A stretch of 64,000 nucleotides of DNA from an uncultured Bacteroidales bacterium (GTDB lineage Bacteria; Bacteroidota; Bacteroidia; Bacteroidales; CAIWKO01). The notes below the pieces were generated by a model. It searched no databases. It saw only the letters and a list, made by a program, of their open reading frames with translations, and was not told where the DNA came from. The stretch covers positions 1 to 64,000 of the forward strand of contig CAIWKO010000010.1 of NCBI GenBank assembly GCA_903913285.1, read 5' to 3'. The translations under genes were made by a program, and so were the position numbers. Of this stretch, positions 9,305-45,155 are shown one piece after another. Every line of letters begins with the position of its first letter. Position 1 is the stretch's first letter.

Positions 9305-12244
9305 ATGCCGAATAAACTAAAACATATTTTTTGTGTTCTTGCCATGTTGTTTGTTGCTACATACACTTGTGCACAGCAATACAGCTACAAGCATTACACT
9401 ATACTTGACGGATTGGTACAAAACCAGATAACTACATTATACCAAGACCGTCAGGGATATATATGGGTAGGAACTAAAGGGGGTGCCAGCCGATTTGACG
9501 GTTTGCATTTTAAAAATTATACAGCAGATGATGGGTTGCCTACCGGTTTGGTGCAAGGTTTTCTGGAATTACATAACGAACTTTATTGTTATACAGCAAA
9601 TGGAATTTCCGTTTTAAGAAACGGGCGGTTTGAATTAATATACACATTACCTAAACCCCAATTAGAAAATATCAAACTTAATTCCGATTCTACTAAAGCT
9701 TATATTGTTTTACATTATGAGATATTGCAAGCGAATAAAATCGGTATTCACAGCATTTATACTTTTCATGAGAAAACCTTAATAGGAAATTTCTGTATCG
9801 ATCCGGAAACTGAAAAACTGATATTTTCAAATTCAGAAAGTATTTTTAGTCTGGACAAAAAAAATGCACTTAAGACTATTTATAATTCATACTGTGGGAG
9901 AATAATCAATATTAATAGACATGTCTATTTTGTCTTAGAAAATGTTAATTCTAAAAATAATCTTAATGGTATTTATAAATTAATGAATGAGAAACCTACA
10001 AAAGTTTTTAATGGTTACCCAAAACCAATGTTCGGGTCAATTACTTTGAACAGAAACGGAAACATTGTTTGTTTTTTAGATAATTCCAGTTGGGCAGAAA
10101 TTGATACAAACGGAAAGGTTTTAGATCAGGATTCTTTACCCAATATTATTATTACTGAATTTATTTGCGACCGCGAAGGAAATTATTGGTTCGGAACCGA
10201 AACCGGACTTTATTGCTTACAATCATTTGCTTTCAGAAATTATGGTGAAAAATCGGGTATACCATCTTATGTGTGGAGTATTATGGAAGCTCACGACAGC
10301 GCTATGGTTTTTGCAGGTTTTGGAGGTGGACTGGGAGTGCTGAAAAAAAATAAAGTTACAATTATACCGAAAGCAAAGTACATGATGTTTAATGATGATA
10401 AATTCTATATGGATGGCATGTGCAACAGTAGGGGTGATGGATTTTTGCCAATGGAAAAAGGTCATATCCTTATTTACGATGGAAAAAAGTTTGTGAATTT
10501 AATATTAAAGTTTTCTGGAGAATACTCAGTTACATTATGCACTTATGAGGATATTGCTGAACACCTTATGTACTTTGGAGGTACCAATGGATTGTTTTTA
10601 TATAATATTGTCGACAAGTCGCAAAAAAATTATGCAACTGAAGGCCATAATGTTCTTTACGTGGAAGCAGATAAATTTAACCGAAAATGGATATGCACCA
10701 ATGCAAAAATATATTTGTTCGAGCACGATTCACTGAAAGAGATGCACCTGCCGGGCATGGAAAACAAATCGGCAGTGGTTTCGTGCAAACGCGACCCGCG
10801 TGGCAATATGTGGCTGGCATGCAAAAGCGGGCTTTATCTTTATAACTGGAAACACTATATTAAATTTTCGGGGGGACAATACTCTTTTATAAGCTTGTAT
10901 CAAAATCGATATTTAATTGCCGGAGCTATAACGGGGTTTTTATACATCGATTTGGATACTTTTTATGCCATGAAGCCTGATTGTTTCCGGTTTTTCGACC
11001 GCTACAACGGTTTCACCGGAATTGAATGCGGGCAAAACGGAACCTGCACCGACAGTAAAGGCAATGTGTGGATACCTACTTCGGAAAGCGTGGTGAAGTT
11101 TATGCCGTATCGGTTGAAAAAAAATACGCTTGCCCCTACTTTAAATGTTTATTCGTTCGAAATTTCGGGCAACGATTTGAAATGGGATAATATCTTTGAC
11201 GAATATTCCGAAACGGGCAAAACTATTAAACTCACTTACGATAAACACAATATACGAATCACGTATCAGGGTATTTCGCTTTCGTGTCCTGAAAAAGTCA
11301 ACTATAAAACCCGATTGGTGGGCTACGATAATACATGGTCGGAACCGAACAACGAAAAAACAGCCGTTTATACCAACCTGTCGCCCGGCCGTTATACGTT
11401 CGAAATTTTAGCTTGTAATGCCGACGGTGTTTGGACTGAGAAACCTTTACAGGTGAATTTTGTTATAATGCCTGCTTTCTGGCAAACCTGGTGGTTTATA
11501 TTGTTAGCAGTTTTGGTATTTACATTTGATGTAGTGGCTATCGTATACTTTATTATGAGAGCCAGGCGAAAAAAAGAACAAAAACAACGGGCTATCGAAA
11601 AGGAATTGGTGAGCATGCAAATAAAAACCATCAATGCTCAGATCGATCCGCATTTTGTGTTTAATGCCATCACAGCTATAGGAGCCGAAGTGCAGGAAAA
11701 CAATGCCGAAAGAGCCTACTCATATTTTGTGAAGGTATCGAACCTGTTGCGGAATTCGTTAAAAAACAACGAAAAAATGATCAGACCTTTGAGCGATGAA
11801 ATTGATTTCGTGAACAACTATCTTGTTTTGCAAAAATTCAGGTTTGGAGAGCGTTTTGAGTATGTGGTGAATGTTTCGGAAGATACGGATTTGAAATTCG
11901 AAATCCCGAAAATGTGTATACAAACTTTTGTTGAAAATGCAATGAAACACGGGCTTGAACATAAAAAAGCGGGAGGTTTGTTACAGGTAAACATCAACAC
12001 TCAAAACAAACTACTGATAGCTGAAATTATCGACAATGGAATTGGACGGATACAAGCAGAGAAATTTAATTTAAAATCAACAGGAGTTGGGCTAAACACA
12101 CTCAGACAGTTTTTTAAGATTTTTAATTCGTATAATTCAGAAAAAGCGGGCTTCTATATTGAAGATCTGTTTAATGAATCGGGCGAGGCTTCCGGAACGA
12201 AAGTAATTTTGAGCATACCACTTAGCTATAAATTTATTGTGTAA
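9305..12244 (+). CDS. Two-component sensor: propeller repeats, Y_Y_Y domain, TM, LytS-type histidine kinase
   Basis: LDGLVQNQITTLYQDRQGYIWVGTKGGASRFDG propeller motif; QIDPHFVFNAITAIGAEV His_kinase box; C-terminal ATPase domain. Start moved to 9305 for a signal peptide. Confidence 0.88.
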   Translation: MPNKLKHIFCVLAMLFVATYTCAQQYSYKHYTILDGLVQNQITTLYQDRQGYIWVGTKGGASRFDGLHFKNYTADDGLPTGLVQGFLELHNELYCYTANGISVLRNGRFELIYTLPKPQLENIKLNSDSTKAYIVLHYEILQANKIGIHSIYTFHEKTLIGNFCIDPETEKLIFSNSESIFSLDKKNALKTIYNSYCGRIININRHVYFVLENVNSKNNLNGIYKLMNEKPTKVFNGYPKPMFGSITLNRNGNIVCFLDNSSWAEIDTNGKVLDQDSLPNIIITEFICDREGNYWFGTETGLYCLQSFAFRNYGEKSGIPSYVWSIMEAHDSAMVFAGFGGGLGVLKKNKVTIIPKAKYMMFNDDKFYMDGMCNSRGDGFLPMEKGHILIYDGKKFVNLILKFSGEYSVTLCTYEDIAEHLMYFGGTNGLFLYNIVDKSQKNYATEGHNVLYVEADKFNRKWICTNAKIYLFEHDSLKEMHLPGMENKSAVVSCKRDPRGNMWLACKSGLYLYNWKHYIKFSGGQYSFISLYQNRYLIAGAITGFLYIDLDTFYAMKPDCFRFFDRYNGFTGIECGQNGTCTDSKGNVWIPTSESVVKFMPYRLKKNTLAPTLNVYSFEISGNDLKWDNIFDEYSETGKTIKLTYDKHNIRITYQGISLSCPEKVNYKTRLVGYDNTWSEPNNEKTAVYTNLSPGRYTFEILACNADGVWTEKPLQVNFVIMPAFWQTWWFILLAVLVFTFDVVAIVYFIMRARRKKEQKQRAIEKELVSMQIKTINAQIDPHFVFNAITAIGAEVQENNAERAYSYFVKVSNLLRNSLKNNEKMIRPLSDEIDFVNNYLVLQKFRFGERFEYVVNVSEDTDLKFEIPKMCIQTFVENAMKHGLEHKKAGGLLQVNINTQNKLLIAEIIDNGIGRIQAEKFNLKSTGVGLNTLRQFFKIFNSYNSEKAGFYIEDLFNESGEASGTKVILSIPLSYKFIV

Positions 12245-12295
12245 TTTTATGGTTCGAAGAATAGAACGCTGATGACAATATAAATAAAAAAAATA

Positions 12296-12374
12296 GAACG
12301 CTGATGACACAGATTTGTATGATTTACGCAGATAAAATCATTTTTAATCATAAAGATTCGCGTTATCTGTATTC
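12296..12374. repeat. Palindromic repeat R1 (79 bp)
   Basis: GAACGCTGATGACACAGATT...ATTCGCGTTATCTGTATTC; left arm is near-complementary to right arm. Confidence 0.85.
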
Positions 12375-12391
12375 TATAAAAAATAAAAAAA

Positions 12392-12799
12392 ATGATTACA
12401 GATAATTACAAACATTCGGAAATTACTGAAAAAGTTATTAAAGCATTTTATAAGGTGTATAATACTTTGGGATATGGATTTTTGGAAAAGGTTTATGAAA
12501 ATGCATTGTTTTTTGAACTGGTTGAAATGGGCTTTTTTGTCGAAAAACAAAAACAAATAACGGTTTATTACGAAGAAAAAGAAGTAGGCGGCTATTTTGC
12601 GGATTTGATTGTTGAAAATTGCGTGATACTTGAATTAAAAGCTGCAGAAGCCTTATGCGAAGAACATGAATTTCAATTGATCAATTATTTGAAGGCAACT
12701 GAAATTGAAGTTGGGCTATTATTGAATTTCGGAAAGAAACCTGAATTTAAACGAAAAGTATTTTCTAATAAAGAATGGAACGCTGATGACACAGATTAA
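12392..12799 (+). CDS. GxxExxY protein (PD-(D/E)XK nuclease-superfamily fold)
   Basis: GFLEKVYENAL = GxxExxY motif; D...ELK core in FADLIVENCVILELKA. Stop codon lies inside repeat R2. Confidence 0.88.
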   Translation: MITDNYKHSEITEKVIKAFYKVYNTLGYGFLEKVYENALFFELVEMGFFVEKQKQITVYYEEKEVGGYFADLIVENCVILELKAAEALCEEHEFQLINYLKATEIEVGLLLNFGKKPEFKRKVFSNKEWNADDTD

Positions 12800-12880
12800 T
12801 ATGATGAACGCAGATATAATAATGCAGAAATTTTTAATTAAAATCATTTTTGATCATAATGATCCGCGTTATCTGCGTTC
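12778..12880. repeat. Palindromic repeat R2 (~103 bp, internally expanded)
   Basis: Begins GAACGCTGATGACACAGATTAATATGAT and ends GATCCGCGTTATCTGCGTTC. Confidence 0.85.
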
Positions 12881-12891
12881 TATAAAAAAAG

Positions 12892-12933
12892 ATGATTACA
12901 GATAATTATAAACATTCGGAGATTATTAAAAAA
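12892..12933 (+). pseudogene. Truncated 5' copy of the GxxExxY gene (~42 nt) fused to repeat R3
   Basis: ATGATTACAGATAATTATAAACATTCGGAGATTATTAAAAAA vs intact 12392 ATGATTACAGATAATTACAAACATTCGGAAATTACTGAAAAA. Confidence 0.85.
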
Positions 12934-12936
12934 ATG

Positions 12937-13015
12937 GAACGCTGATGACACAGATTTGTATGATTTACGCGGATAAAATCATTTTTCATCATAAAGATCC
13001 GCGTTATCTGCGTTC
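12937..13015. repeat. Palindromic repeat R3 (79 bp)
   Basis: GAACGCTGATGACACAGATTTGTATGATTTACGCGGAT...GATCCGCGTTATCTGCGTTC. Confidence 0.87.
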
Positions 13016-13032
13016 TATAAAAAATCATTGAT

Positions 13033-13785
13033 ATGAATGAGGAGAAATATAAAGTAATTATTGTCGACGATGAAGAACCTGCACGTCGCAATTTGGCGAA
13101 TACACTTTCGAAATACAGCGATATAGAAATTGTTGCTCAGGCAGCCGATGCCGCTGAAGCCTTATCGGCTATTGTCAGCAAACGGCCCGATTTGGTGTTT
13201 TTGGATATTAAAATGCCGCAACAGGATGGCTTTGCCTTGCTTGATGAATTGATAAAACTAAAATGCAATGGCTTTCAGGTGGTTTTTTTAACTGCTTACA
13301 GCGAATTTGCCATAAAAGCCATCAAATACGATGTGTTTGATTATATCCTGAAACCTATAGCCCCCGATGAACTTGATAAAACGCTAACTAAATTCAGAAT
13401 TAAAAAACACGACGGCTCGCTTAACGATATCGACTACCTCGACAAACTCAAACATCTTTTCGAAAAAAACAATAAGATCAGGTTTAAAACCAACACAGGC
13501 TTTATATATCTGCAACTTGAACAAATTGTTTATATAAAAGCCGACAAAGGTTATTCCGACATTTACGATACCGATAATAATAAGCATACCGTATGTAAAA
13601 CCCTGCAATTGCTACTGGATGAAATAAACGAAAAATCCCTGATCAAAGTTCATAAAAGCTACGCTCTAAACGCACTTTATTTAAGCTCCTACAATAGAAT
13701 TAAAAAGATCTGCATCCTAAAATCTGGAAACAGCACGTATGAAGTGCCGGTTTCGAACCGCATGGAATGCAATTTAAGCCGATAG
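13033..13785 (+). CDS. LytTR-family response regulator (REC + LytTR)
   Basis: IIVDDEEPARRNL, LVFLDIKMPQQDG, FLTAYSEFAIKAI, FDYILKP; C-terminal LytTR domain. Confidence 0.93.
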   Translation: MNEEKYKVIIVDDEEPARRNLANTLSKYSDIEIVAQAADAAEALSAIVSKRPDLVFLDIKMPQQDGFALLDELIKLKCNGFQVVFLTAYSEFAIKAIKYDVFDYILKPIAPDELDKTLTKFRIKKHDGSLNDIDYLDKLKHLFEKNNKIRFKTNTGFIYLQLEQIVYIKADKGYSDIYDTDNNKHTVCKTLQLLLDEINEKSLIKVHKSYALNALYLSSYNRIKKICILKSGNSTYEVPVSNRMECNLSR

Positions 13786-13804
13786 AAAACTGTTGACAAA
13801 AATG

Positions 13805-13884
13805 GAACGCTGATAACGCTGATTAATATGATGAGCGCAGATAAAATCATATTTAATCATAAGCAATCCGCGTTATCTGCGTTC
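13805..13884. repeat. Palindromic repeat R4 (80 bp)
   Basis: GAACGCTGATAACGCTGATTAATATGATGAGCGCAGAT...AATCCGCGTTATCTGCGTTC. Confidence 0.85.
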
Positions 13885-13904
13885 CTTTTACTCCCCTCCT
13901 AATT

Positions 13905-13955
13905 TACGTTCGTTGCCAAAAAGCATACGTTGGTTGCCAAAATTGCTACGTTAAC
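13905..13955 (+). promoter_or_regulatory. Three putative LytTR-binding direct repeats spaced exactly 21 bp
   Basis: TACGTTCGT (13905), TACGTTGGT (13926), TACGTTAAC (13947). First two match [TA][AC][CA]GTTN[AG][TG] 9/9, third 8/9; 12-bp gaps. Confidence 0.75.
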
Positions 13956-14040
13956 AAAGTCGATTGACATTTGCTTGCGTCAAAAAAATTATTACCAGTA
14001 CTTTGTAATCGAAAATTGTAATACTAAAACCATTAAAAAA

Positions 14041-14046
14041 AGGAGG
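14041..14046 (+). promoter_or_regulatory. Consensus Shine-Dalgarno AGGAGG upstream of 14052
   Basis: AGGAGG-ACACA-ATG, 5-nt spacer. Confidence 0.8.
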
Positions 14047-14051
14047 ACACA

Positions 14052-14756
14052 ATGCCAAATTTAAACATTTCCGCATCAATTGACCCGGCTGACAAAGCCA
14101 CCCTCATTTCCAATGCATCGCATATAATGGATATACTCAAATTCATGGTAAACCTCGATCCCAAAACCCGTAAACGCCTGCGCAAGATGGCAACCAAACG
14201 TACGGGCTATGTAAAAGACGTTTATATGGCTGTACTCGCCAATTCTCCGGCTATACCCGATACCTTCGATATAGACGGATACAAAAGCGATATGACACTG
14301 TATGACGATCTTCATGAACTTTTAGGTTATTTTCTTCCTATTGTAGAAGGTATTCAGGACACGATGCTTGCTCTCGGAAACGAACTGATGAAACAAAGCG
14401 ACACCTGCTACAACTATCTGCAACGCGCCGCTAAAGACAATGCCCCACTAACCGATACGGTTGCCCGAATCGGAACTGCTTACAGAAGAAGTACACCAAA
14501 AGCAGCTACTGCCTTTACGATTGCTGCCGCCGGAGCTACCGTTATTGAACATGTTAAACCCGGCACGCGCATAGTAAACACGGGAACTTCCGTAATTAAA
14601 TTCAAACCAGGTAACGATTTAGCTTCGAAAGTTCGTATCGCATATATTACAATAGATCCCGGCAATTCGGAAGTGATACCTAAAGGATATACTTCCATAG
14701 TGGTTGAAAACGTGAGCACCACTGCCGAAGCCATTTTCACAGTTAGAATGAAATAA
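14052..14756 (+). CDS. Hypothetical protein without signal peptide; C-terminal beta-rich domain
   Basis: 234 aa intact ORF with strong SD; C-terminal ITIDPGNSEVIPKGYTSIVVENVSTTAEAIFTVRMK. Confidence 0.75.
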   Translation: MPNLNISASIDPADKATLISNASHIMDILKFMVNLDPKTRKRLRKMATKRTGYVKDVYMAVLANSPAIPDTFDIDGYKSDMTLYDDLHELLGYFLPIVEGIQDTMLALGNELMKQSDTCYNYLQRAAKDNAPLTDTVARIGTAYRRSTPKAATAFTIAAAGATVIEHVKPGTRIVNTGTSVIKFKPGNDLASKVRIAYITIDPGNSEVIPKGYTSIVVENVSTTAEAIFTVRMK

Positions 14757-14763
14757 TTCAGAT

Positions 14764-15099
14764 GAGCGCTTCTACAATTCAACGGAGTACTTTATTTGTT
14801 CGGGCGAGCACTTCGCTTGTTCAAAGGAGTACTTCGTTTGTTGAGGCGAGCACTTCGTTTGTTGAGCCGAGAACTTCACTTGTTGAGGCGAGAACTTCGT
14901 TTATTGAAGCGAGTACTTCCGTTATTGAGACGAGAACTTCGTTTGTTGAGGCGAGTACTTCGCTTGTTGAGGCGAGAACTTCATTTGTTGAGGCGAGAAC
15001 TTCGCTTGTTGAGAAGAGAACTTCGTTTGTTCAAAGGAATACTTCGTTTGTTGAGGCAAGGACTTCGTTTATTGAAACGAGTACTTCGGTAGTATAAAG
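14764..15099 (+). repeat. 16 x 21-bp degenerate tandem array (consensus GAGWACTTCGTTTGTTGAGGC); may encode a heptad-repeat ORF 14762-15097
   Basis: Sixteen consecutive 21-bp units read without indels. Confidence 0.92.
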
Positions 15100-15180
15100 T
15101 GGAGTTTCCCACTATAAAAACGAGCCTGTCCCGATCAGGTATTTTAATCGGGGGCGGAACTGAAAAGCCAAAAGAGTAGG
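15099..15180 (+). ncRNA. Leader element copy L1 (putative structured 5' UTR; core 15121-15180)
   Basis: CGAGCCTGTCCCGATCAGGTATTTTAATCGGGGGCGGAACTGAAAAGCCAAAAGAGTAGG, 21 nt before ATG 15201. Confidence 0.75.
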
Positions 15181-39480: not shown

Positions 39481-39587
39481 TGTTGGGTTTCGCACTATTT
39501 CTTTTGCAGGATGTTTTGAAGGGAACTAATCAGGGGTTTTTTAAATTCTGTCTGTTCCAAAAAATGAAATACGCGCTATTGCTGCCT

Positions 39588-39915
39588 AAAACCCATTCTG
39601 TTTCGTCAGAATGGGGTTTTTTCCGTCTAAAACGCATTGTGACGCGCGGAAATGGGTTTTTTTCGAAATAAAATGCATTGTGACGCGCGGAAATGGGTTT
39701 TTTTCCGTCTAAAACGCATTTCGTTTCGTGGAAATGGGTTTTTTTCGGAATAAAACGCATTGTGACACGCGGAAATGGGTTTTTTTCGGAATAAAATGCA
39801 TTGTGACACGCGGAAATGGGTTTTTTTCGGTCTAAAACGCATTTCGCTTCGGGGAAATGGACTTTATGTCAAAAATAATGCATTCCGACGCGGCAGAATG
39901 GACATTTTGTCATAT
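39588..39915. repeat. 8 x 41-bp tandem array of hairpin-forming units with 123-bp higher-order structure
   Basis: AAAAYGCATT...AAATGGGTTTTTTT units beginning 39588, 39629, 39670, 39711, 39752, 39793, 39834, ~39875 (constant 41-bp step). Confidence 0.93.
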
Positions 39916-44884: not shown

Positions 44885-44902
44885 ACTCTGAATCGTTGTG
44901 TT

Positions 44903-45112
44903 CCGGGAAAATTTCCGTGAAGTCCGGGAAAGTTTCCAGGGTGTCTGGGAAAGTTCCAGGGAATACCGGGAAAGTTCCAGGGAAGTCCGGGAAAGTTCCA
45001 GGGAATACCGGGAAAATTCCAGGGAAGTCCGGGAAAGTTCCAGGGAAGTCCGGGAAAGTTCCAGGGAATACCGGGAAAATTCCAGGGAAGTCCGGGAAAG
45101 TTCCAGGGGGTG
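44903..45112. repeat. 10 x 21-bp tandem array (CCGGGAAAGTTCCAGGGAAKW)
   Basis: Ten consecutive 21-bp units without indels directly after the mtnP stop. Confidence 0.93.
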
Positions 45113-45116
45113 TCAA

Positions 45117-45155
45117 AAAAGAAAGGGACTTCGAATTCGAAATCCCTTTCTTTTA
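45117..45155. terminator. Bidirectional terminator
   Basis: AAAAGAAAGGGACTTCGAATTCGAAATCCCTTTCTTTT between convergent mtnP and eno. Confidence 0.9.

What the first reader, a model, noticed from the sequence alone, without database searches (positions are those of the whole stretch)
13905..13955. Perfect LytTR operator triplet directly after a LytTR response-regulator gene
TACGTTCGT, TACGTTGGT and TACGTTAAC start at 13905, 13926 and 13947, exactly 21 bp apart (9-bp box + 12-bp gap). The published LytTR-domain consensus is [TA][AC][CA]GTTN[AG][TG] direct repeats separated by 12-13 bp. Two boxes match 9/9 and the third 8/9. They lie ~100-150 bp upstream of the 14052 ATG and ~120 bp after the stop of the LytTR regulator (13033-13785), whose probable sensor is the kinase at 9305-12244. 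This gives a concrete regulator-operator-target prediction.
Basis: partly seen in the sequence, partly recalled or inferred. Interest (0 to 1): 0.72.

Follow-up and report, generated by a model that had tools for sequence, protein, structure and literature searches.

The report
Three-box LytTR operator before a gene
Three evenly spaced copies of a short DNA word, lying between a LytTR-type regulator gene and the next gene, are most likely the docking site where that regulator switches the next gene on; following it up revealed a related, apparently undescribed set of docking sites in front of about twenty promoters of this genome and in many relatives.

Summary
In detail: TACGTTCGT, TACGTTGGT and TACGTTAAC start at 13905, 13926 and 13947, 21 bp apart (0/1000 shuffles). 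A match to the published LytTR consensus is weak evidence here. This genome carries a 21-nt-period satellite about every 16 kb, 1 of 26 sampled arrays also matches three tandem LytTR boxes, and every other exact TACGTT-21-TACGTT I inspected in five congeners lies in such an array.

Independent evidence favours an operator. The genome has 21 sites of ACCGTTAAC-N12-ACCGTTAAC (same 9+12 geometry; 24 hits, 0 in control), usually 33 and sometimes 42-43 nt upstream of a TAnnTTTG promoter. Five adjoin LytTR genes. In six genomes of three families the site sits directly downstream of one orthologous LytTR response regulator, which is the window's architecture. The window's third box is 43 nt from its -7 element. 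The syntenic locus of a congener keeps sensor, promoter and target gene, and has CGTT boxes 33 nt upstream of its -7, although kinase and regulator were swapped.

The triplet is not a member of the ACCGTTAAC set by PWM, so it is probably the private operator of the adjacent regulator. Binding is untested.

The parts
9305..12244 (+). sensor histidine kinase (Reg_prop propeller, Y_Y_Y, LytS-type His_kinase), probable partner of the regulator
   Evidence: Pfam. Sensor half is 55% identical to the G004 HK, kinase half only 28%; the G001 ortholog has 53% sensor and 72% kinase identity.
13033..13785 (+). LytTR-family response regulator, proposed binder of the triplet
   Evidence: Response_reg 8.8e-25, LytTR 2.3e-9. 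Closest relative is a G001 ortholog (46%); closest own-genome paralog is C5:10999 (35%).
13905..13913 (+). box 1 TACGTTCGT
13926..13934 (+). box 2 TACGTTGGT
13947..13955 (+). box 3 TACGTTAAC, 7 of 9 positions equal to the order-wide box ACCGTTAAC
13970..14005 (+). candidate Bacteroidota-type promoter: TTTG at 13970 and TACTTTG at 13999 (43 nt after box 3)
   Evidence: Direct reading. The counterpart in G004 is TATCTTTG, 33 nt after its last box; promoter-to-start DNA is conserved. Match to TAnnTTTG is only 4/6.
14052..14756 (+). proposed target: 234-aa protein of an undescribed family (helical N-terminal part, cupin-like beta-roll C-terminal part)
   Evidence: No Pfam or NCBIfam match. Homologs in 23 of 295 genomes of the order. 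Low-confidence model, pLDDT 53 overall and 70-80 in the C-terminal part, best matches small cupins/PpnP.

Best explanation
The triplet is a three-site LytTR-type operator. Phosphorylated response regulator 13033, activated by the sensor kinase 9305, binds the three direct repeats side by side on one DNA face (two helical turns apart) and activates, less likely represses, the promoter at about 13970-14005, controlling the 234-aa gene 14052. Shown: box sequences, spacing, LytTR and kinase domains, gene order, and the genome- and order-wide existence of a related operator with the same geometry, promoter distance and position next to LytTR regulators. Inferred: that this regulator binds these boxes, the sign of the effect, and the kinase-regulator pairing.
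For: (1) The pair and triple are never reached in 1000 shuffles, and this is the only short 21-nt periodicity outside long arrays in 427 kb of the genome. (2) An independent LytTR-type operator exists in this genome: ACCGTTAAC-N12-ACCGTTAAC, 24 hits versus 0 for the reversed control, at 21 sites. In 12 of 21 the last box is 32-33 nt from a TAnnTTTG-like -7 element, in 3 it is 42-43 nt. Window box 3 is 43 nt from its candidate -7. (3) Five of the 21 sites adjoin LytTR genes, of which the whole genome has 14. (4) The site lies directly downstream of orthologous LytTR regulators (55-71% identical to C5) in G000, G001, G003, G200 and G344, and by coordinates in G002, covering three families: the regulator, operator, target order of the window. 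(5) In G004 the order sensor kinase, LytTR regulator, P234 is kept. Sensor (55%), promoter and P234 (54%) are conserved while kinase (28%) and regulator (31%) are exchanged, and CGTT-containing boxes end 33 nt before TATCTTTG. (6) Three direct repeats with 12-13 bp gaps are a documented LytTR operator form (RcoM1, CoxC; PMC11347149).
Against: A PWM from the 21 ACCGTTAAC sites scores the triplet -21 and -17 bits against 44 or more for real sites, so it is not the same site. In G004 the LytTR consensus score is not above chance (pair 977/1000, triple 148/1000 shuffles). Of about 25 P234 homologs only two have a LytTR regulator in front. The G001 regulator ortholog (46%) has no P234, and pairs of TACGTT boxes are not enriched in any of the five genomes. 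The spacer is conserved between copies 1 and 2, which an operator does not require. The -7 element is weak.
Confidence: 0.7

Rival explanations
1. The triplet is a short (2.3-copy) member or relic of the 21-nt satellites that fill intergenic DNA in this genus; its fit to the LytTR consensus is accidental.
For: 26 arrays with period about 21 nt in 427 kb, all with different units. The 14052 gene is itself followed by one (14757-15101). Three other own-genome loci with exact TACGTT-N15-TACGTT, and all congener loci of this kind that I inspected, are long arrays. One of 26 arrays scores 27/27 as LytTR boxes. Copies 1 and 2 share 16 of 21 nt.
Against: All sampled arrays are at least 84 bp; no other 2-3-copy lag-21 run exists in 427 kb. 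Only about 4% of arrays would match the LytTR boxes this well. It does not explain the position next to a LytTR gene and the promoter, nor the CGTT boxes at the same place in G004.
Confidence: 0.2
2. The triplet is an operator, but for another regulator: another LytTR protein of the 14 in the genome, for instance the C5-type regulator, or an unrelated factor.
For: 14 LytTR genes in the genome. Box 3 resembles the ACCGTTAAC box of the C5-type regulator, and TTGCCAAAA occurs in the spacers of congener sites.
Against: The PWM of the ACCGTTAAC set rejects the triplet. The adjacent LytTR regulator is the simplest candidate, as for the C5-type operator.
Confidence: 0.09
3. Chance arrangement without function.
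For: Single boxes occur at chance level.
Against: 0 of 1000 shuffles reach the pair or triple.
Confidence: 0.01

Closest known systems
Canonical LytTR operators (pair of 9-bp direct repeats, 10-13 bp apart)
   Same: 9-bp boxes with a GTT core, 12-bp gap, upstream of a promoter, next to a LytTR response regulator gene (description in PMC11347149)
   Different: three boxes instead of two; located in a Bacteroidota-type genome with a TAnnTTTG promoter; binding unproven
RcoM1 and CoxC operators (three direct repeats, 12-13 bp spacing)
   Same: triplet of direct repeats bound by a LytTR domain (PMC11347149)
   Different: box sequence TTCNNGCA / TTNNNGCN instead of TACGTTNNN; one-component CO sensors, not a two-component pair
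ACCGTTAAC-N12-ACCGTTAAC sites found here
   Same: identical geometry, similar promoter distance, directly downstream of a LytTR response regulator
   Different: different box sequence; the window triplet fails their PWM
BrickBuilt minisatellite MITE of Porphyromonas gingivalis (PMC4596501)
   Same: intergenic tandem repeats with about two helical turns per unit, comparable to the 21-nt arrays noticed here
   Different: one 23-nt repeat family within a MITE; the arrays here have unrelated units at each place

Membership tests
LytTR operator | direct repeats of about 9 bp matching [TA][AC][CA]GTTN[AG][TG] | tested here: met
   9/9, 9/9, 8/9; the consensus itself was taken from the finding
LytTR operator | gap of 12-13 bp between repeats | tested here: met
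   12 bp twice
LytTR operator | upstream of, or overlapping, the promoter of a target gene | tested here: met
   box 3 ends 43 nt before a candidate -7; the promoter is inferred, not mapped
LytTR operator | bound by a LytTR protein | not testable with these tools
   needs EMSA or footprint
LytTR operator | conserved at the orthologous locus with the same regulator | tested here: inconclusive
   the only syntenic locus (G004) has another regulator (31%); CGTT boxes at the right place but not above chance by consensus score
LytTR response regulator (13033) | receiver plus PF04397 domain over curated cut-off | tested here: met
order-wide ACCGTTAAC operator | match to PWM of the 21 own-genome sites | tested here: not met
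   -21 and -17 bits versus at least 44
21-nt intergenic satellite | at least 4 copies (84 bp or more) of a 21-nt unit | tested here: not met
   2.3 copies; shortest of 26 sampled arrays is 84 bp

The most novel reading that the evidence does not exclude
LytTR response regulators of this order carry their own operator directly behind their gene, and kinase, regulator and operator move as a cassette: in two congeners the same sensor domain and the same output gene flank different kinase-regulator-operator modules, so input and output are kept while the transmission line is exchanged. The ACCGTTAAC operator then marks a separate, order-wide LytTR regulon (single-domain LytTR genes, candidate TonB and ExbB genes, outer-membrane and secreted proteins) that has not been described.
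Probability: 0.4. Interest if true: 0.65.

Novelty: new member of a known kind. Interest (0 to 1): 0.5.

Why it matters
I found no described binding site for LytTR regulators of Bacteroidota in the held open-access library (most subscription papers are not held). This locus gives a testable regulator-operator-target triple. The comparison behind it yields an operator with fixed promoter spacing that can be used to predict a whole regulon across many families.

Tried and rejected
Scoring of single boxes (chance level). A genome-wide scan with the LytTR-like pair pattern (153 hits against 398 for the control, no enrichment). A TACGTT-pair regulon in the five congeners (not enriched; strong hits are satellites). 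The triplet as a member of the ACCGTTAAC set (PWM rejects it). A PDB search with the LytTR half alone (only weak hits, E 0.47). The P234 model is too poor for more than a cupin-like hint in its C-terminal part. Paper searches for 21-bp intergenic tandem repeats in Bacteroidetes gave nothing pertinent except the P. gingivalis BrickBuilt element.

Full report
Observation. The three words start at 13905, 13926 and 13947. Against the LytTR consensus they score 9/9, 9/9 and 8/9; 0 of 1000 dinucleotide shuffles reach the pair or the triple. Single matches to the consensus are at chance level in the window. Copies 1 and 2 agree over 16 of 21 nt, spacer included, so this is a tandem 21-nt unit as well as a set of boxes.

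Setting. Upstream lies a sensor kinase, 9305-12244 (Reg_prop, Y_Y_Y, His_kinase), then a GxxExxY-type gene with repeated hairpin elements, then the LytTR response regulator 13033-13785. Downstream is a 234-aa gene (here 'P234') without any family match in Pfam or NCBIfam, followed at once by a 21-nt satellite, 14757-15101.

Why the consensus alone does not settle it. Of 427 kb of this genome inspected (contigs C10, C18, C26), 26 intergenic arrays of period about 21 nt were found, with unrelated units. One of these 26 scores 27/27 as three tandem LytTR boxes. In five congeneric genomes, the other exact TACGTT-N15-TACGTT loci that I inspected lie in long 21-nt arrays. A LytTR-like pair pattern is not enriched over its control in the genome. 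On the other side, the triplet is far shorter than any array and is the only short lag-21 run outside arrays in the 427 kb.

Independent evidence for a LytTR operator. The genome has 14 LytTR genes. In front of four single-domain LytTR genes, and just behind the response regulator at C5, a shared site appeared: ACCGTTAAC-N12-ACCGTTAAC. With up to one mismatch it has 24 hits in this genome and 0 for the reversed control. Order-wide, 35 of 344 genomes have hits, with 138 hits in all against 43 for the control (my sums of the table); the genomes rich in sites, such as G000, G003, G070, G117 and G268, have almost none in the control. At the 21 own-genome sites the last box is 32-33 nt from a TAnnTTTG-like -7 element in 12 cases and 42-43 nt in 3. 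A box histogram in the 427 kb peaks at a spacing of 21 (4 pairs, others 1-2; small numbers). Five of the 21 sites adjoin LytTR genes. The site is directly downstream of orthologous LytTR regulators, 55-71% identical to the C5 one, in genomes of three families: G000, G001 and G003; G344; G200; and, by coordinates, G002. Judged from the protein sequence only, other predicted targets look like TonB, ExbB and outer-membrane or secreted proteins (no family search was run on these).

How the triplet relates to it. It shares the 9+12 geometry, the CGTT core, a box 3 (TACGTTAAC) with 7 of 9 identical positions, the position directly behind a LytTR regulator, and a distance of 43 nt from box 3 to the candidate -7 element. 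It fails the PWM of the ACCGTTAAC set, so I read it as a distinct operator, presumably of regulator 13033 (35% identical to the C5 regulator, its closest own-genome paralog).

The G004 locus. In the congener G004 (KR_bin-2776) the order kinase, LytTR regulator, P234 is kept. The sensor half of the kinase is 55% identical and P234 54%, but the kinase half is 28% and the regulator 31%. In G001 the kinase half is 72% identical to the window's, so the low value in G004 is a replacement, not ordinary divergence. DNA similarity resumes at the promoter and start of P234 (14020-14060). In G004 the boxes ACCGTTTCG / GCCTTTCAA / CCCGTTCAT end 33 nt before TATCTTTG (direct reading of the sequence; the script itself picked another TATTTTTG at 21 nt). 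By LytTR consensus score these boxes are not above chance. Sensor and output gene thus stayed together while the transmission module between them changed, which supports P234 as the output of this system. The number of loci is two.

What remains open. Binding, the sign of regulation and the kinase-regulator pairing are inferred. The pairing rests on gene order here and in G004, and on co-occurrence, unlinked, in G001. The other P234 homologs have no LytTR regulator in front. The -7 element of the window is a weak match. The PWM was built from sites chosen by near-exact match and is therefore strict.

Verdict. An operator of known kind, most likely real (0.7), with a satellite relic as the main rival (0.2). 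The order-wide ACCGTTAAC sites are the more consequential by-product; no held paper with this motif in a relevant context was found.

Noticed in passing
window 14757-15101, 39582-39867, 44892-45125; 26 places in contigs C10, C18, C26; also G002, G003, G004, G199, G223, G284: Genome-wide intergenic satellites with a period of almost exactly 21 nt (sometimes 41-43), 84-400 bp long, each with its own unrelated unit, about one per 16 kb; also present at lower density in other families of the order. No explanation for the fixed period with free sequence.
   Followed up: partly
window 14052-15101; L002, L009, L010, L012, L014, L046-L071: Genes of the P234 family are accompanied by such arrays across the order: about 17 of 26 homolog loci of about 3 kb contain one, against roughly 2 expected from 8 arrays in 377 kb of sampled DNA (my count).
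   Followed up: partly
G000 C10:74557, C10:111577, C10:181264, C18:88720: A second family of about 205-aa proteins with an MTGN motif (for example MKKPLIDFSAYYVAALIIKARNIVTKMTGNPDFPTPDP) repeatedly lies beside the 21-nt arrays; the one member searched had no Pfam or NCBIfam match.
   Followed up: no
G000, 21 sites, e.g. C5:10910, C68:62859, C56:30697: Order-wide ACCGTTAAC-N12-ACCGTTAAC operator at promoters of LytTR, TonB-like, ExbB-like, outer-membrane and small HTH-like genes.
   Followed up: yes
window 9305-14756 versus L092 1000-5687: Exchange of kinase half plus response regulator between a conserved sensor domain and a conserved output gene in two congeners.
   Followed up: yes
window 12262-13018 and 13804-13886: Four copies of an approximately 80-100-nt inverted-repeat element (GGAACGCTGATGACACAGATT ... 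ATCCGCGTTATCTGCGTTC) around a GxxExxY-type PDDEXK_3 gene (12392-12799), inserted between kinase and regulator and again just before the triplet; absent at the G004 locus, where kinase and regulator overlap.
   Followed up: partly
G000 C36:25003-25269 and C36:25400-25786: A 21-nt array with TACGTT in its unit lies directly behind a single-domain LytTR gene; possibly coincidence.
   Followed up: no
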